Source: Candidatus Methanoperedentaceae archaeon
Lineage (GTDB): Archaea; Halobacteriota; Methanosarcinia; Methanosarcinales; Methanoperedenaceae
DNA length: 51,712 nucleotides
Direction of reading: 5' to 3'
Assembly (NCBI GenBank): GCA_003104905.1
Contig: PQAS01000020.1
Location: forward strand, 1 to 51,712
This document shows positions 4,127 through 51,712 of the stretch, in pieces (position 1 is the first letter of the stretch; each line of letters starts with the position of its first letter). Position numbers and translations under genes: made by a program. Under the pieces are notes generated by a model, which worked only from the letters and a program-made list of their open reading frames with translations, was not told where the DNA came from and searched no databases.

Positions 4127-5077
4127 TTGCTAAGTGTTAACGAAAAAGCAATGGAAATTGCAGAAGAAATGATGGATTGGTCGGAAGAATTAAAAATAAA
4201 AGCTTTAGAATTGAAAAATGGCGGAAAAGTCATAGATTGCGGGATAAACGTGCCGGGGGGGTATGAAGCCGGTCTTTTATTCACTGAGATCTGTATGGGG
4301 GGGTTCGGAGGCTGTTCAGTATCAGTGCATAAAATAAGTGATATACCAGTTGGGTTCATCGATGTTACAACGGATCATCCTGCAATATCATGCCTTGGAG
4401 CGCAGAAAGCGGGGTGGAGGATAAGTGTGGATAAATATTTCGCCATGGGTTCAGGCCCTGCAAGGGCGCTTGCGCTAAAACCCAAGAAAACTTATGAGCG
4501 AATTAAATATGAAGATGATTATGAGTATGCTGTTATCGCCCTTGAATCGAACCAGCTTCCTGATGATAAAGTAATTGACACAATAGCAGAAGCATGCCAT
4601 GTTGAATCGGAAAATGTAATAGCCCTTGTAGCGCCCACAGCCAGTATAGTTGGCTCGGTACAGGTTTCAGGACGCGTGGTTGAGACAGCAATATTTAAAC
4701 TCAATGAACTTGGATACGATACTACAAAAATAATAAGCGGCACAGGATGCGCCCCAATCGCCCCGGTCGTCAAAGATGATCTGAAGGCCATGGGAAGCAC
4801 CAATGACAGCGTGATATATTACGGCTCCGTATTCCTTACTGTGAGGGGATTTGAAGAAGATAAATTCAAGATGGTACCTTCCAGCACTTCAAAGGATTAT
4901 GGTAAACCATTCTATAAAACATTCAAGGATGCCGGATATGATTTCTTCAAGATCGACGCCAATGTGTTCGCGCCGGCCGAAGTTACCGTAAATGACCTTG
5001 AAACGGGTAAGACATATCATGCAGGCCACCTGAATAGTGAAGTAATTCTGGAATCTTATGGCATAAACGGGATATAA
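4127..5077 (+). CDS. mch: Methenyl-tetrahydromethanopterin cyclohydrolase
   Basis: 316 aa, usual length for Mch. It interconverts methenyl-H4MPT and formyl-H4MPT in the cytoplasmic C1 pathway; in methane oxidisers it runs in the hydrolytic direction. Family motifs include [14 protein letters not shown] near residue 55, the [11 protein letters not shown] segment near 108, and [12 protein letters not shown] in the second half. The start codon is TTG 4127, fixed by a strong SD. The gene stands alone, divergent from the LUD gene and convergent with the helical-repeat protein. It is the clearest sign of a methanogen-type C1 pathway in the window. Confidence 0.97.
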
Positions 5078-6256: not shown

Positions 6257-6320
6257 TTTATTTTATATAGGACTTAGATTAATAGATAATTAACTGCATT
6301 TAAAAAAATGTGGCAAGGAG
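6257..6320 (+). promoter_or_regulatory. Promoter and SD of the multicopper oxidase gene
   Basis: A TATA-like sequence TTTATTTTATATAG (6257-6270) would place the transcript start near 6290. The SD AAGGAG (6315-6320) lies eight bases before ATG 6329. This decides against the earlier in-frame ATG at 6308, which has no SD. Confidence 0.55.
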
Positions 6321-6328
6321 TAGGAAAT

Positions 6329-9300
6329 ATGGGATTAAAACAAATCAGGGATGAATACATTCCAGACAAAAAAAAACATATATCAAAGAAAATGAATAAA
6401 GCTAGTTTTGGAATGATATTACTTATCGCAGGAATACTGTTTTCAATATTTTTATTGAATAGCAGCGCTGCTGTCACGAGTATTATACCAGCATCAGAAG
6501 GCAGTTCCGTTACATCGGCGCAAAACCAGTCATTAAGCGAAAATACCGGGAATAATGCCCAGTCCAATGCCGTCGACAAGATCAAACCCATAAAGAAGAG
6601 AAAGACAAAAGAGGAAAGAGCTGCCGCAGCAAAAAATAAGAAAGCGCTTCTTGATGCCACGGCCAATGCTATCATCAATCCTGCGCTTGTCGGGCCAGCG
6701 CCTGGAAGTTCACTCCTTACACCTGACTATTGGGGATTTGCTCCCAACTATGCAAACAGCCCTTTGCCGCCAGTTGTAAACATTATGGGTGGGAACGGTA
6801 CTAACGCTACCGGGTTGGCTACAGTACAGAAAGGTGTGGTTACCGATATCATGATTATGAATGGGGGAAGCGGTTACAACTCTACTCCCAATGTCACCGT
6901 AACAGGAATAGATGGTTCAGGAGCCACGGCATCAGCGACAATAACCGGTCCTGTTACTGCTCTTACACTTATCGACGGAGGCTCAGGATATACATTGGCT
7001 CCCAATGTCACCATATCTGCGCCAACGAGTATTGGAGGAATCACAGCTACTGCTGATGCAATAATTTCCGGCGCTGTAAGCAGTTTAATGTTGGTGAATG
7101 GTGCCGGATATACTTCTCCGAATGTCAGCATATCGGGTGGCGGAGGTGCCGGGGCTAATGCTACCGCTTACGGATCAGTGGACAATATTATGATAACTAA
7201 TACAGGTTCAGGCTATATCGCACCTGTCGTCGTGATTTCCGCGCCAACATTACCCGGGGGAATAAACGCAGCAGCTACGGTAAATGGATCGGTGGATAAT
7301 ATTACGGTGCTTGACCCGGGATCCGGCTATATTGCCCCCGTCGTCGTCATTTCCGCGCCAACATTACCCGGAGGGATCAACGCTGCAGCTACGGCAATTA
7401 TTGATATAAATGGCAACATAACTGGCATAACGCTTGACAACGGAGGCTCAGGTTATACAACTGCGCCAGTTGTGAGCATTACTGGCGCTAATACCACAGG
7501 CGCTATCGCCTTTTCTACGATCAATGTTTCCGGCATTACGCTTGATAGCGGTGGTTCAAACTATACAACTGCACCTGCTGTCAGCATTACTGGCGCTAAT
7601 ACTTCAGGCACTATCGTCTCTTCTACGATTAATGTTTCAGGCATTATGCTTGATAACGGAGGTTCGGGTTATACGTCTGCGCCTGTTGTCACTATTTCTG
7701 ATCTTATAGGATTCCCAACCACTTTTGCAACTGCAACAGCATCTATAAGCACTTCTGTTACCGGCCTCATTATCACGAATCAGGGCAGCGGCTATACATC
7801 TGCTCCTGCGGTCACTATTGATGCGCCAGCAAGCGGAATTACAGCTTCGGCATATGCAACCATAACAGGTCCTGTTACCGCTATCACATTAACGAATGGA
7901 GGCAGTGGCTACGGCGGTATGCGAAAATTTGTTGATTCCCTGCCCGGTCTGAACATCGCGGGTGCAAATAACATTGGTCAGTATCTTCCCGTCGCTGTTC
8001 CTGATATCACAACATATCCGGACACTGATTATTACGAGATAGAGCTGGGAGAGTATACGGAGCAGATGCATTCGGACCTGGCTCCAACAAAACTGCGAGG
8101 CTACAGACAGACCAATACGAATGATCCCAATATTAGCAGGTTCAGTTATCTGGGTCCGGTCATAGTAGCCCATAAGGACCGACCTGTACGTATCAAGTTC
8201 ACCAACAATCTATCAGCGAACGCGGGAGGTAATCTTTTTCTGCCTGTTGATCCAACCGTCATGGGAGCGGGTATGTTCGACATTAACTGGGATCCCAATA
8301 CAAAGCTGCCTCTGGCAGGACCAAACCTGGTCGGGAACTTCAGCCAGAACCGCGCTACTCTTCATCTCCATGGCGGCAATACTCCATGGATCAGTGACGG
8401 GACGCAGCACCAATGGATCACACCAGCAGGTGAATCGACTTCATATCCCAGAGGCGTGAGTGTGGCGTATGTTCCTGATATGTGGTATGACCCGATTAAA
8501 CATGCAACAGTTCCCGCAGGGACGGCAAATGCAACAAATGATCCTGGCAGTGGTTCGCAGACGTTCTATTATACCAATCAGCAGAGTGCAAGGTTGATGT
8601 TTTATCACGACCACGCTTACGGGATCACGCGTCTTAACGTCTATGCGGGAGAAGCTGCGGGTTACCTTGAACAGGATCCTGAAGAGCAGGCTATGGTAAA
8701 CGCAGGGATTATCCCGGCAGCGCAAATCCCCCTGATAATCCAGGACAAGACCTTTGTACCGGGTCCGAACCAGCTGTATGCCCAGGATCCCACATGGGAT
8801 ACGGCCAAATTTGGCGGCTTCAGTAATCTCTGGCTGCCTCATGTCTATATGCCTAACCAGAATCCATGGGACACAAGCGGAGCGAACGCCATGGGACGGT
8901 GGGACTATGGCCCATGGTTCTGGCCTGTGTTCCCAACGACCTTCGGCCAGGTCCTAAATCCGTACTATGATCCAGTCAATGCGCCGTGGGAGCCACAATA
9001 TATCCCTGGGACACCTAATCCGTCCATTGTACCTGAAGCTTTCATGGATACAGTTGTTGTCAACGGAGCTGTCTACCCATATATTACCGTGGAACCAAAG
9101 GCATATCGGCTGCGGATATTGAATGCAGCAAATGACAGGTTCCTCAACCTGCAGCTGTATCAGGCCAAGTCAGGTAATCCTATGTGGGATGCAAATGGCA
9201 ATATTTCAGACCCGAATGCTGGCGAGGTCAACATGGTTCCATTTAATTCGAACCAGAATTTGATCACGCCATTCCCTGCCTGGTGGTATACGCCCGGACT

Positions 9301-11620
9301 TAACTTTGTTTTCGATGATCGCGCCGGCGGCGTTCCGGATCCGAGAACAAGAGGGCCGGCCATGATCCAGATCGGCACAGAAGGAGGATTACTGCCGATG
9401 CCGACTGTTGTAAGAAATCAACCTGTGAATTATGTCTATAATAGAAGGGACATTGTTGTATTGAATGTTTTAGAGAAAGCGCTTTTCCTGGGGCCTGCGG
9501 AGAGAGCGGACGTTATCGTGGACTTCTCCAATTTTGCCAATAAGACGCTCATTCTCTATAACGACGCACCTGCACCGGTTCCGGCGGCTGATTCACGAGT
9601 TGACTACTACACAGGGGATATGAATCAGACGGATACAGGAGGCGCGCCAACGACCCTGCCGGGTTATGCTCCCAATACGCGTACTATCATGCAGATCAGG
9701 GTATCGGGAAGTGGAGGAAGCGCACCCGTCGATGATGTAAACCAGACCATGCTGGCAGATTTGCAAAATGCATTGCCGATAGCCTATAATAGGACACAGG
9801 ACAAACCTCTTGTGCCGCAGGCAGCCTACAATACTGCCTTTAACGCAAATTATCCTACCGATGCGTATGCAAGGATACAATCTACAAACATGACCTTCCA
9901 GAACGGGGCACTTACAAATATAACTATAACCAACAATGGTTCCGGATTTACCCTTCCTCCAAATGTGAGTTTCATAGGAGGCGGCGGCACAGGCGCAACA
10001 GCTGCAACAACATTAGCCGCAAGGAATGTTTCCAGCCTCACACTTAATTTCGGTGGTTCAGGCTATACTTCTGCTCCTGCCGTCAGCATCACAGGCGGAG
10101 GCGGAACCAATGCAACAGCCACAGCAACATTAGCCGCAAGGAATGTTTCCAGCATCACCGTTACTAATGGAGGCTCTGGTTACACCACTCGTCCTAATGT
10201 CACTATCTCAGCACCGACAACTCCGGGTGGCGTAACGGCTACGGCCAATGCAACGGTACAAGCAAACGGTCAGCATCGCGTAATCAGTATAACCGTTACG
10301 AACCCCGGCTCCGGTTATACCTCTGTTCCCACAGTCAATATATCGGGTGGCGGCGGCACAGGCGCTACTGCTACAGCAGCTCTGGGAACTGCAGCAGTTG
10401 CCAGCCTTAACCTTACAGCCAATGGCTCTGGTTTTACCTCTGTTCCCACTGTCAGCTTCAGCGGTGGCGGTGGTTCAGGCGCTAATGCAACAGCAATTCT
10501 AGGAACCGCAGCAGTTGCCAGTGCAACGCTCACAAAGGGGGGCTCTGGTTATACCTCAGTTCCGGCTGTGAGCATCCTGCCAGTCGATGGGAACGGTGCG
10601 GGCGCAACTGCAACAGTAACGCTTGAATCTATAACAATGAATACCGAACCAAAGACTATTCAGGAACTCTTCGATCCCGATTATGGAAGAATGAATTCCT
10701 TGTTGGGAGTGGAGATGCCGTTTACGACTGCGTTTGTCCAGACTACGATCCCCTATACGGACATAAATCCGCCTACTGAGATATTCAGGAACTCTGATCA
10801 TGCAGTTTCCCTCGGAACACTGTCAGATGGAACCCAGATATGGAAGATCACGCATAATGGCGTTGATACGCATGCCCTACACTGGCACATGTTCAATGTG
10901 CAGTTAATCAACCGTGTTGGCTGGGATGGGGCAATCAGGCCGCCGGATGATAACGAACTGGGGTGGAAGGAAACAGTCCGTATGAACCCGCTGGAGGATA
11001 TCATAGTTGCAATGCGGCCGATCATACCCAATGTTCCCTTCGATTTACCCAACAGCATCCGGCCATTGGATGTCACAGAGGCATTTGGAACGACCCAGCA
11101 ATTCGGGGCTCTGAACGGGGGCCAGGCTGTCGACCCGACAAACCAGCCTGCCACTGTCACCAACAGTCTTGTAAACTTCGGCTGGGAATATGTCTGGCAC
11201 TGCCATCTGCTGGGACATGAGGAAAACATCATGATGCGGTCAATGATAGTAACGCTGACACCAAAGGATCCATCCAACCTGACAGCTGTATCCAGCGGGA
11301 CAAAGAAGAACCCGGCTGTGAACCTCACCTGGATGGACAATTCCGCTAATGAGATCAGCTTTACCATCCAGAGAGCCACATCTGTCAATGGCCCGTGGAT
11401 CAATGTAACAACATTGTCGTCTTCATCCATAACAGGGCCTGGAACCGGCATGCGGACATATACCGACACATCGGTTGCAAAAGCGACGACATACTATTAC
11501 AGAGTGATAGCCAATAACGTGGTCGGCTATACCCAGACGTATGCACCCCCGGCAGTCGGATATCCGAGCATGAGGGCAGATTCGCTGCCATCCGGAACTG
11601 CAACCGTTGCTATCCCATAA
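6329..11620 (+). CDS. Giant exported multicopper oxidase with two GSGY-repeat blocks and a fibronectin-III-like tail
   Basis: 1763 aa. Order: basic N-terminus, signal/anchor helix (about residues 28-48), Lys/Ala-rich linker, GSGY repeat block 1 (~155-530), cupredoxin domains 1-2 (~545-1185), repeat block 2 (~1187-1427), last cupredoxin domain (~1430-1640), fibronectin-III-like domain (~1645-1745). All four copper motifs are intact: HLHGG (~677), HDHAYG (~758), HALHWH (~1513), and HCH-x3-H-x4-M ([13 protein letters not shown], ~1622). So the trinuclear centre and the type 1 site with axial Met should form. The family oxidises metals, phenols or Cu(I) with O2. In an anaerobe the substrate and acceptor are unclear; Mn/Fe oxidation, O2 removal or copper defence are possible. 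The protein acts outside the cell. It is monocistronic with its own promoter and terminator. Confidence 0.92.
6790..7920 (+). repeat. GSGY repeat block 1, about ten units
   Basis: Each unit is about 36-42 aa (roughly 110-125 bp) and follows V-x-x-I-x-L-x-N-G-G-S-G-Y-T-x-A-P-x-V-x-I. Nine full units and one partial unit are visible. Two neighbouring units encode the identical string [19 protein letters not shown] (about 7216-7272 and 7336-7392), with only scattered base changes, which points to recent duplication. It is coding, in frame, and lies before the first cupredoxin domain. Confidence 0.9.
9900..10625 (+). repeat. GSGY repeat block 2, six units, between cupredoxin domains
   Basis: Six units of the same repeat, richer in GGGGTGATATA strings than block 1. 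The block sits in the linker before the cupredoxin domain that carries HALHWH. Units 1-2 and 4-5 share near-identical coding sequence (TLAARNVSS and LGTAAVAS junctions). Confidence 0.9.
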
Positions 11621-21808: not shown

Positions 21809-22999
21809 TCAGTCATCTCTCTTATTGTCTTCTTCTTGTCTTGTTTTTCCATACTTATCATCATCCATTTTATCATTTCTATCGGACCCCTGTTCAGGCA
21901 CATTATCGCTGTCGTTTCCCTGTAATTCACTATCGTTTTCCTGTACTTTGCTATCGTTTTCATCCAATCCGTTATTATTTTCTTCAGATCTTATCTCCTC
22001 TTGAAGTGTTTTTATTTCCAGGACACTAAGAATTTGTTTTGGGGTTAGATCTGATAGCTTATTGTGGATACTATCGATCATTTCTGTCCTGTTTGTTTCA
22101 TTGAGGAGGAAATTGTATTCAACTTTGATATTGGATATATTTGAACCGACACTGGCCTGTGCTTCAAGGATCGAGTTGAGCTCATTATCGTATGAATCAT
22201 CGATTTCGATAGCACTTGAGATGTTTTCTTTGCTCAACCTGAGCTCTTTTATTATCTCGTCTGCAATAGAATCATTATCCGTTTTATTGGACATGAATTT
22301 CAACTCGATCTTTACCTGTGTATTGTTATCGATCGGACTTGCTTCCAATTTCAATTCATATTTAAATTCTTGAAGGTCGTTGTCTTCCCTATCTTCTCTA
22401 ACATCTCTATCTTCTCGATTCTCCTTTTTTACTGCCTTCAAATAATGTCTTCCTTCTTTTGTCAGTATCCGTTCAAGTTTTCTATCCGTCTTTTCCTCAA
22501 AAATGTTTTCGAGCTCGATGCTGTTATTATATGCATTCAATAGCCCGGAATTATTCGGATGTAATTCCAGAAGTCTTTCAAGAATATATTGATGTTTTGT
22601 GATCATTTTCTGTGCATTGAGCATCCCTGAATCATTGTCCCTTTCTTCTGCAATTGAATCCTCAGTCTCCTTTATTTTCTCTTCGTAGTTTTCAAATGCC
22701 TTTTTTGCTCCTTCATCGTTTTTCTTTTTCAATTCGGTCTTTGCTTCAGATATCCGAAGTCTTGAATGGTATATCTTTTTCTCAAGTTTTTCAGTAGTAT
22801 TTAATGTGAAACTTTCATCCAGTCCCTCAAATGCAAGTTTCAGTCCATACAGGGCGTTATCCGGACCTATTGATCCATTATATTCTTCTATATCATCGAC
22901 AAGCTCATCGGGAGATCTGTCTTCCTGGGCTGAACCGATTATGTTCAGGGTGAATGCAAGAAGGATTATTCCTGTCACCGTTAACCTTATAGTATTCAT
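21809..22999 (-). CDS. DUF5667-like exported protein with acidic tail
   Basis: 396 aa. The signal peptide ends near GSAQ (about residue 25). The motif GPDNALYGLKLAFEGLDESF matches the DUF5667 signature (PDsPLYgLKlafE) in archaeal and bacterial surface proteins. The middle is strongly helical and charged. The last ~55 residues are a low-complexity acidic tail with repeated NDS. It is probably secreted or surface-bound with no known enzyme activity. SD AAGGTGA directly precedes ATG, and a TATA box (about 23046-23057) lies upstream. Confidence 0.78.
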   Translation of the reverse strand: MNTIRLTVTGIILLAFTLNIIGSAQEDRSPDELVDDIEEYNGSIGPDNALYGLKLAFEGLDESFTLNTTEKLEKKIYHSRLRISEAKTELKKKNDEGAKKAFENYEEKIKETEDSIAEERDNDSGMLNAQKMITKHQYILERLLELHPNNSGLLNAYNNSIELENIFEEKTDRKLERILTKEGRHYLKAVKKENREDRDVREDREDNDLQEFKYELKLEASPIDNNTQVKIELKFMSNKTDNDSIADEIIKELRLSKENISSAIEIDDSYDNELNSILEAQASVGSNISNIKVEYNFLLNETNRTEMIDSIHNKLSDLTPKQILSVLEIKTLQEEIRSEENNNGLDENDSKVQENDSELQGNDSDNVPEQGSDRNDKMDDDKYGKTRQEEDNKRDD

Positions 23000-28217: not shown

Positions 28218-30053
28218 TCACGATCTATATTTTTTTAAATTGCCGATTTCTTTTTCATATTCCGCAATTTTTTTCTCATATTCGGCAATTATTTTCTTAA
28301 GTTCGATCATGCGCATTTCCCTTCCAACAAAGACCCTGTTGAAATGCTCAAGTTCTTCATTCTTCTTGTTCAACTCCGCTGTGCGCTCATTGATAAGTTC
28401 TTCTAGATGAACGCGGTGTTTTCTTAGTTCCTCTTCCGCCAGCTTGCGCTCGGTTATGTCGATAGTGTATCCTGCAAGATAACGCGGGTTACCATCAATA
28501 AAGATCGGGAACTTGGTTGTCGAATAGAATCGGCCATTGAGCTCTTCTTCAATAGTGTTTTGTTTTCCTTCTTTCATAATTCTCATATCATCTGCTACCA
28601 TGCTTTTGGCAAGCTCTGATGGAAATATGTCCTCCATGCTTTTGCCAAGCAATTCTTTTAATGGTTTCCCCAACCACGTTTCAAAGTTCTTACTCAGCCG
28701 TATTGCCCTGAAATTCTCATCTTTAAAGAAGACATAAATAGGGCTGTAATCCAATAAACATCTGAAGATTTCTTCGTTTTCCTGTAATGAGGCCAGGTTT
28801 TCCCTGAGTTTAACAGACATTTTGTTGAAGGCGTCAGTTAGTTCGCCTACTTCATCTTCACGTTTTATCTCCAACTTTTGGTCATAATCCCCCTGCGCCA
28901 TTGCTTTTGCGGACCGGGATAGATCTGAAATAGGGCGAGTTAGACGGCGGGCCAGGATGACTGAAACGATTATGGAAAGGAGTAACGAAAAGATTATGAG
29001 CACAATTGTGTTTCGGTTGTTGAGGGAGATTTGGGCCATAAAGTCCGACTCGGGAACAACTATCACGATCCTCCAATCCAATCCTCGTGAATCGACGTAT
29101 GGATTTACATTTATAAAATAGCGTTCTCCCTTGATATCAAACCTTGATTGGTAAGGGGTGGGTATTTTGCCGGGATCAGGGAACTTCTCCATGAGATATC
29201 GTGCTGCAGAAGCGATCAAAGGCTGAGAACTGGAAGATGCGTTTAATCTTTCGATCTTATCACCTTTAATGAGGTAAGGCTGTTCATGGGTGGAAGAGGC
29301 AACGATGAACCCATTTGCCTCCATGATGAATATCTGTCCGCGATTACTGATGTTTATGTTATTGAGATACTGATTTATCTGTAAAAGGGGAACGTCGTCG
29401 TAAAATACGCCCACAAGCTTCCCATCCTGTCCATAATATGGCGTCACAGCCGTCATAGCAAGCCAGGGTCCTGCCAGGGCTGGACTGATGGAAGTCCATG
29501 CTGGTTGTTTAGCCTTAACGGCGATTTGATACCAATCCCGGGTGCGAGCATCGTAGTTTTTCACTTCACTCAGTATTTTATCAGTTCGTTTCCCATCATC
29601 TCCAATAGCATAGCGGCGAAGGACTATGTTGGCTGGGGAAAGGTTAGCAATGACAATTATTTTTCCCACATCATTGGATCCGGCGATTTCACCTCTGTCA
29701 TTTCCAAAACCCATCGTTCCAAAACCCGGAAAAAGTTGTCCTCGATCCCATAAATATTGACCCAAATCATTCAGATCACTGCCATTTATTCGTCCGGACA
29801 GCATTGAATTCAGGTTTATCTCGTTGATCATGAAGGCTGTGCCCATGTAATTGTCCAGGTGCTGCTCAACAAGCATAGTAATTTCAGAAAAAAGGAGCAT
29901 CACCATATCATCCACTGCCTTCTGGCCATTTTCAAAAGCCAGATAGCCTGTGAGCCCGACAGTCGCAATAATGAGAATCAGGAATGGGATGGCCAAAGCA
30001 AGACTGAGCGGATGCTTTACCATAGATTCATTAGATCCTGGCTTATTATCCAA
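28218..30053 (-). CDS. Cache-HAMP-PAS sensor without an output domain
   Basis: 611 aa. Membrane helix (~17-38), extracellular double-Cache domain (~45-335), second helix (~345-365), HAMP (to ~420), PAS (~430-540), then a coiled coil ending in the heptads IAEYEKKIAEYEKEI. The segment FNRVFVGREMRMIELKK, common at the end of PAS-chain proteins, is present. No histidine-kinase, cyclase or methyl-accepting domain follows. It may signal by contact with a kinase encoded elsewhere or pair with the chemoreceptor next to it on the same strand. It is the last of this pair, 122 bases downstream of the chemoreceptor stop. Confidence 0.88.
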   Translation of the reverse strand: MDNKPGSNESMVKHPLSLALAIPFLILIIATVGLTGYLAFENGQKAVDDMVMLLFSEITMLVEQHLDNYMGTAFMINEINLNSMLSGRINGSDLNDLGQYLWDRGQLFPGFGTMGFGNDRGEIAGSNDVGKIIVIANLSPANIVLRRYAIGDDGKRTDKILSEVKNYDARTRDWYQIAVKAKQPAWTSISPALAGPWLAMTAVTPYYGQDGKLVGVFYDDVPLLQINQYLNNINISNRGQIFIMEANGFIVASSTHEQPYLIKGDKIERLNASSSSQPLIASAARYLMEKFPDPGKIPTPYQSRFDIKGERYFINVNPYVDSRGLDWRIVIVVPESDFMAQISLNNRNTIVLIIFSLLLSIIVSVILARRLTRPISDLSRSAKAMAQGDYDQKLEIKREDEVGELTDAFNKMSVKLRENLASLQENEEIFRCLLDYSPIYVFFKDENFRAIRLSKNFETWLGKPLKELLGKSMEDIFPSELAKSMVADDMRIMKEGKQNTIEEELNGRFYSTTKFPIFIDGNPRYLAGYTIDITERKLAEEELRKHRVHLEELINERTAELNKKNEELEHFNRVFVGREMRMIELKKIIAEYEKKIAEYEKEIGNLKKYRS

Positions 30054-51572: not shown

Positions 51573-51712
51573 GAGCGTGAAGATTCCCACCTAAAATTGA
51601 CCCACTTTTCCCATCGAAAATTGACCCACCTAAATTACTAAAATACTCCTGATTAATTGCAGGAGGTTTTGAGGTGATCTCAATGGAAGATTGGATAACA
51701 ATAAGAAACTTG
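51573..51712 (+). mobile_element. Left end of an IS21-like insertion sequence (cut by the window)
   Basis: AAAATTGACCCAC appears twice in direct orientation (51593-51605 and 51617-51629), as in the multiple terminal repeats of IS21-family ends. It is followed by an SD (AGGAGG, 51661-51666) and the start of a transposase frame. The exact left boundary and target duplication cannot be set. The right end is outside the window. Confidence 0.65.
51674..51712 (+). CDS. istA: IstA-type transposase, first 13 codons
   Basis: GTG 51674, seven bases after AGGAGG, reads MISMEDWITIRNL and runs off the end of the window. MEDWITIRNL is the usual start of IS21-family IstA transposases before their helix-turn-helix. 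ATG 51683 is the alternative start. Confidence 0.6.
   Translation, partial: MISMEDWITIRNL

What the first reader, a model, noticed from the sequence alone, without database searches (positions are those of the whole stretch)
6329..11620. Multicopper oxidase interrupted twice by GSGY repeats in a probable anaerobe
All copper ligands are intact, yet about 620 residues are GSGY repeats: about ten before the first cupredoxin domain and six between cupredoxin domains. Neighbouring units are nearly identical at base level, so the array is still changing. A repeat block inside the linker next to the trinuclear site may form a surface shield, a filament or a mineral-binding patch. Multicopper oxidases need O2 in known cases, so the role in a methane-oxidising anaerobe is open; extracellular Mn or Fe oxidation is one possibility.
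Basis: partly seen in the sequence, partly recalled or inferred. Interest (0 to 1): 0.7.

Follow-up and report, generated by a model that had tools for sequence, protein, structure and literature searches.

The report
Surface copper oxidase with paired repeats
A methane-oxidising archaeon carries a large cell-surface copper enzyme, of a family spread across bacteria and archaea, into which long strings of a small repeated protein module have been plugged at fixed places, nearly always in even numbers, suggesting that two repeats make one structural building block.

Summary
One open frame (6308-11620, 1770 aa) encodes a three-domain, CotA-like multicopper oxidase with all copper-ligand motifs, ten GSGY units before domain 1 and six at the domain 2-3 junction. 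"Nearly identical" units is overstated: neighbours average 64% at base level, 78% at best. The protein is not unique. Relatives occur in many phyla (475 stretches; Neobacillus about 64% identical), and some Geobacterales relatives sit in mof-type operons, so the core looks like the OmpB/MofA group linked to Fe(III)/Mn chemistry. Most relatives have an ordinary loop where block two sits. Arrays recur at the same sites (A, B, C). New here: array counts are almost always even (36 arrays of four or more units, one odd), although neighbouring units look singly duplicated; AlphaFold suggests three strands per unit. The same repeat, also mostly in even counts, occurs in cyanophage baseplate proteins. 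I infer that two units form one six-strand module whose ends meet, so it can be plugged into a hairpin as a surface spacer, here probably N-glycosylated (28 sequons against 12 expected). Metal-binding by the arrays is unlikely. The substrate is unresolved; the genome also encodes a cbb3-type oxidase.

The parts
6308..11620 (+). multicopper oxidase gene, 1770 aa; alternative start Met8 at 6329
   Evidence: single open frame
6407..6475 (+). N-terminal hydrophobic stretch (residues 34-56), probable signal or membrane anchor after a basic N-terminus
   Evidence: sequence read directly; the same pattern is seen in Methanoperedens homologues
6770..7912 (+). block A: ten GSGY units, residues 155-535, site A, upstream of cupredoxin domain 1
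7913..8767 (+). cupredoxin domain 1 (approximate ends) with HLHG (8363-8374) and HDH (8606-8614)
   Evidence: ligands invariant in 30 homologues
9158..9226 (+). site B in domain 2 (short here, no array); holds 2-16 GSGY units in some relatives
9902..10618 (+). block C: six GSGY units, residues 1199-1437, site C, between flanking strands at the start of domain 3
   Evidence: a short segment in most homologues
10619..11305 (+). cupredoxin domain 3 with HALHWH (10871-10888) and [12 protein letters not shown] (11198-11233)
   Evidence: Pfam Cu-oxidase_2 above cut-off
11306..11617 (+). C-terminal FN3-like tail (about 104 aa)
   Evidence: sequence resemblance only; no Pfam FN3 match

Best explanation
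This is a secreted or membrane-anchored, catalytically intact CotA-type multicopper oxidase of an OmpB/MofA-like family that moves between lineages. The GSGY arrays are not part of the catalytic fold. Each ~39-residue unit supplies three short beta strands; two units together make one six-strand module whose ends lie close together, so any whole number of pairs can be plugged into a permissive hairpin (sites B, C) or between the N-terminal stem and domain 1 (site A) without disturbing the copper core. The arrays act as rigid, neutral, surface-exposed spacer or adhesion modules, in this species probably N-glycosylated, holding the oxidase in or beyond the cell-surface layer. The enzyme most likely oxidises metal ions or small reductants outside the cell. 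Shown: domain order, intact ligands, site-specific insertion, even counts, kinship of the repeat with phage virion proteins, sequon enrichment. Inferred: the pair module and its fold, glycosylation, spacer role, substrate.
For: Ligands and fold: (CotA best match). Distribution and sites: (arrays at sites A/B/C; a few (L062, L097, L120) near the D2-D3 linker). Even counts at C: 2,2,2,4,4,4,4,4,6,6,6,6,6,6,8,8,8,10,12,12; at B mostly 2, also 4 and 16; at A 2,4,6,8,10,14,38 and one 9. Of 36 arrays of 4 or more units one is odd. The sister gene G002 differs from the window by exactly two units at both sites (10/6 against 8/8). Units next to each other are more alike than units two apart, so evenness is not just copying by pairs. 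Three strands per unit in the AlphaFold output. The same repeat in T4-like cyanophage gp7-type proteins, in 8, 6 and 2 units. Sequons 28 against 12.4 expected, bacterial arrays 0.95 of expectation. Array state changes at least 9-11 times on the core tree. OmpB/MofA-like operons next to some relatives.
Against: AlphaFold confidence in the arrays is low (mean pLDDT 47 and about 40), so strand count and pairing are weak evidence. Even counts come from related proteins and some counts needed reading by eye: G023 site B was 5 by HMM and 4 by eye, three Methanoperedens B sites were 3 by HMM and 2 by motif, phage first arrays 7 or 8, and P-HM1 has a 5-unit hit. G012 site A has 9. The sister gene G002 has no sequons in its arrays, so glycosylation is not general. 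Window neighbours are not a mof operon. No expression or localisation data.
Confidence: 0.5

Rival explanations
1. The arrays form an open-ended beta-solenoid or filament; even counts are accidental or inherited, and the arrays simply lengthen the protein as a stalk.
For: Regular ~39-residue period, strand-rich prediction, long arrays of up to 38 units at site A.
Against: Insertion into a hairpin needs both ends at one place, which an open rod does not give unless it folds back. Even counts hold across many lineages and both B and C, with counts changing between relatives.
Confidence: 0.2
2. The arrays are selectively near-neutral passengers: slippage at a tolerated loop inserts and trims units, with no role of their own.
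For: Counts change between close relatives; presence is patchy (4 of 350, 3 of 343 and 4 of 193 genomes with strong matches); many homologues lack arrays.
Against: Frame, even counts and the GSGY motif are kept although units have diverged to about 58-64% at base level. Sequons are enriched or purged in a species-specific way. Independent appearance at the same sites.
Confidence: 0.15
3. The enzyme works as in Geobacter OmpB: an outer-surface multicopper protein needed for reduction of insoluble Fe(III)/Mn(IV) oxides, with the arrays contacting the mineral.
For: Core relatives are widespread in Geobacterales (50 of 77 genomes) and some lie next to FKBP isomerase, SCO1 and MofC-like genes, as described for mof/ompB clusters (PMC5566968). 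The genome has many multihaem cytochrome-like genes.
Against: The named OmpB and MofA sequences were not in hand. The arrays lack acidic, His, Cys and Met residues, and Geobacterales relatives mostly lack arrays. The window has no mof-type neighbours.
Confidence: 0.3
4. The oxidase uses O2 or an N-oxide to detoxify Cu(I)/Fe(II) or scavenge oxidant at the oxic edge.
For: A cbb3-type oxidase is encoded in this genome and conserved in about a third of the genus sampled. An archaeal multicopper oxidase is reported to reduce N2O (PMID 20597980, cited).
Against: Presence of the cbb3-type gene and of this oxidase are not associated in 30 genomes (Fisher p 0.70). No copper-resistance genes were identified next to it (window annotation was partial).
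Confidence: 0.25

Closest known systems
CotA laccase / spore coat protein A and PhsA-type three-domain multicopper oxidases
   Same: best solved-structure matches by sequence (1gsk and others, E 7e-34) and by fold (1w6l, E 2e-17); same copper motifs
   Different: about 500 residues without arrays; the window protein falls far below the NCBIfam equivalog cut-offs for PhsA, CueO and FtsP
OmpB (Geobacter) / MofA (Leptothrix) extracellular multicopper proteins
   Same: large extracellular multicopper proteins; the window core is 50-62% identical to Geobacterales proteins, some with mofB/mofC/SCO1-like neighbours
   Different: the window gene has no such operon; GSGY arrays absent or short in Geobacterales; OmpB and MofA themselves not compared
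Neobacillus multicopper oxidases (L056-L058)
   Same: same architecture: GSGY arrays at sites A (2-4) and C (6), core about 64% identical in the best segment
   Different: bacterial, facultative or aerobic host; shorter block A; sequons at about chance
T4-like cyanophage gp7-type structural proteins with GSGY arrays (PHROG 701, 708, 460)
   Same: homologous repeat (E down to 5e-48), mostly even counts
   Different: virion proteins without cupredoxin domains

Membership tests
three-domain (CotA-type) multicopper oxidase | four copper-ligand motifs with ten His, one Cys and axial Met | tested here: met
three-domain (CotA-type) multicopper oxidase | cupredoxin fold matching CotA across the whole core | tested here: met
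   1w6l, E 2.3e-17, alignment spans the core around the inserts; TM-score on the target only about 0.5 because the model is partly of low confidence
OmpB/MofA | sequence kinship with named OmpB (GSU1394) or MofA | not testable with these tools
   named sequences not retrievable; unnamed Geobacterales relatives up to 62% identical
OmpB/MofA | operon with mofB (FKBP), mofC (cytochrome c) and SCO1 | tested here: not met
   absent next to the window gene (neighbours Mch, TPR-like, PAP2, DUF1638), though present next to Geobacterales relatives
OmpB/MofA | C-terminal fibronectin type III domain | tested here: inconclusive
   FN3-like sequence by eye, no Pfam match
PhsA, CueO, FtsP equivalogs | NCBIfam score above the curated cut-off | tested here: not met
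   112.7 of 950, 45.6 of 525, 29 of 581 bits
GSGY repeat of cyanophage virion proteins | significant profile match of both blocks | tested here: met

The most novel reading that the evidence does not exclude
GSGY repeats are two-unit, six-strand plug-in modules of an undescribed fold, used as interchangeable surface building blocks in both phage virions and secreted enzymes. An even-number rule is enforced by structure, and in some Methanoperedens they serve as a glycosylated scaffold carrying a copper oxidase beyond the surface layer.
Probability: 0.35. Interest if true: 0.75.

Novelty: new variant of a known kind. Interest (0 to 1): 0.58.

Why it matters
If the even-number rule is structural, it defines a simple, testable building block that nature inserts into enzyme hairpins and phage baseplates without breaking them. 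It also points to a surface-exposed copper enzyme in Methanoperedens, archaea that respire methane with nitrate or metal oxides and whose extracellular electron chemistry is usually credited to cytochromes alone.

Tried and rejected
Whole-protein Pfam scan gave nothing; cutting the protein into parts recovered Cu-oxidase_2. One Pfam call failed on frame. A PDB sequence search with block A gave no match. AlphaFold models of both blocks were of low confidence, so no fold search was made with block A. Mineral-binding by acidic or His residues was rejected on composition. Pairwise unit duplication as the cause of even counts is not supported: units one apart are more alike than units two apart. 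Association of the oxidase with cbb3 presence: none. Conserved gene neighbourhood around the window gene: none found in relatives. OmpB/MofA named sequences could not be reached. Literature searches found no paper in the held library joining Methanoperedens with OmpB.

Full report
What is there. A single open frame, 6308-11620 on the + strand, encodes 1770 residues. A basic N-terminus and a hydrophobic stretch precede a stem, then ten GSGY units (block A, residues 155-535), cupredoxin domains 1 and 2, six GSGY units (block C, residues about 1199-1437), cupredoxin domain 3 and an FN3-like tail. All four copper motifs are present, and the ligands are invariant in 30 homologues. The closest solved structures are CotA laccases by sequence and by predicted fold. 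The genome is a Methanoperedens-type MAG: its nearest named relative in the collection is a Methanoperedens sp. MAG, and the methenyl-H4MPT cyclohydrolase-like gene at 4127 fits (own recognition of the sequence, not a database hit).

Adjacent units share 64% of bases on average (51-78%), against 58% for non-adjacent ones; the longest exact repeat is 29 bp. The array is therefore old and diverged, with only patches of recent similarity, and a collapse in assembly is unlikely. An independent genome (G002) shows 8 and 8 units, and Neobacillus isolates show 2-4 and 6.

Family and distribution. A pattern search of 84,980 species genomes found 475 stretches encoding relatives; the best 80 span Bacillota, Actinomycetota, Chloroflexota, Planctomycetota, Thermodesulfobacteriota, Thermoplasmatota and others. 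In a tree of 127 cores the window protein groups with six other Methanoperedens genes plus G020, near Neobacillus, an actinomycetote and a phycisphaerian; other Methanoperedens copies fall in at least two distant places. This indicates transfer between lineages. G008 and G012 even carry members of different clades in the same chromosomal slot. Of 77 Geobacterales genomes 50 have a relative, and some of these lie beside FKBP isomerase, SCO1 and MofC-like cytochrome genes, the arrangement described for mof/ompB clusters (PMC5566968). I therefore place the core near the OmpB/MofA group, while noting that the named sequences were not compared and that the window gene has no such operon.

Insertion sites. 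Relative to the core, arrays are found at three main sites: A before domain 1, B in domain 2 between 'NLQLY' and 'EVxMVP', and C between 'IQSTNMTF' and 'MNxEPKAIQ'. A few proteins (L062, L097, L120) have units slightly upstream of C, in the linker. Without arrays the C segment is typically 28-33 residues. Array presence at C changes at least 9-11 times on the tree, so the site has been filled or emptied repeatedly. In Methanoperedens alone the combinations are A+C (window, G002), A (G007), A+B+C (G012), B+C (G019, G023), B (G020, G027) and none (G008, G018, G021).

Even counts. Read unit by unit, site C holds 2, 4, 6, 8, 10 or 12 units and never an odd number in this sample. Site B holds 2, 4 or 16. 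Site A is also even apart from one case of nine, G012, in which units three and four look like a single-unit duplication (79% identical over 105 bases). Over 36 arrays of four or more units one is odd; if independent this would have a probability of about 5e-10, but the proteins are related and the figure is only indicative. HMM counts differed from reading by eye in a few arrays (G023 B: 5 against 4; three B sites in Methanoperedens: 3 against 2, because the array starts with a half unit). Units one apart are more alike than units two apart, so pairs are not simply copied as pairs. The AlphaFold output for block A shows three strands per unit, at low confidence. The simplest reading is that two units, six strands, make one closed module whose ends are close together, which is what a hairpin insertion needs. 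This is an inference.

Kinship with phage repeats. Both blocks match PHROG families of virion structural proteins (E down to 5e-48), and tblastn finds the repeat in 88 cyanophage records. In the gp7-type proteins of eight phages the arrays have 8, 6 and 2 units, with two first arrays counted as 7 and one P-HM1 array as 5 by HMM. The direction of transfer is unknown.

Surface chemistry. The arrays contain no Glu or Cys, 2.3% Asp, 0.2% His and 1% Met, which argues against metal or mineral binding through side chains. N-X-S/T sequons number 28 against 12.4 expected by shuffling, and 13.7 when only polar positions are shuffled. Bacterial arrays are near expectation (0.95). The sister gene in G002 has none against 8.4 expected although two other secreted proteins of that genome are enriched. 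I infer N-glycosylated arrays in the window's species, with an unexplained contrast in its sister.

Oxidant. The statement that multicopper oxidases need O2 in known cases is too strong: the Pyrobaculum aerophilum enzyme is reported to reduce N2O (Fernandes et al. 2010, PMID 20597980, seen as a reference in PMC11408285). The genome also encodes a fused CcoN-FixO-CcoP cbb3-type oxidase, conserved in about a third of the genus sampled, so transient O2 use is possible. A 2017 review noted multicopper oxidase domains in ANME-2d (PMC5244752).

Verdict. The finding is real, partly misdescribed, and not unique to this archaeon. The enzyme is a new variant of a known kind. The even-number rule of the repeat is the part I find surprising; it was not found described, but the literature search was limited to a held open-access library.

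Noticed in passing
G000:C30:33591-36242 (locus L254/L264): Fused CcoN-FixO-CcoP cbb3-type cytochrome oxidase of 884 aa in the window's genome, 78-88% identical in several other Methanoperedens genomes (11 of 30 sampled with a match); suggests possible O2 reduction in a supposed anaerobe.
   Followed up: partly
window 6770-7912 and 9902-10618; G002 locus L034: N-X-S/T sequons are enriched in the window's arrays (28 against 12.4) but absent from the arrays of the sister gene (0 against 8.4), although other secreted proteins of that genome are enriched.
   Followed up: partly
L037 (G008) and L040 (G012): Multicopper oxidases of two different clades occupy the same chromosomal slot with the same flanking genes in two Methanoperedens genomes.
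   Followed up: no
L059 (Dehalococcoidia, 4057 aa): A relative with about 38 GSGY units at site A plus four at site C and a long C-terminal repeat region with a membrane-anchor-like end.
   Followed up: no
L134 and L135 (viral contigs): Two IMG/VR contigs encode relatives of this oxidase with four GSGY units at site B; may be host DNA or a virus-borne copy.
   Followed up: no
window 21906-21961, 28246-28305, 51584-51629: Short tandem repeats of 21-24 bp, the last one at the contig end.
   Followed up: no
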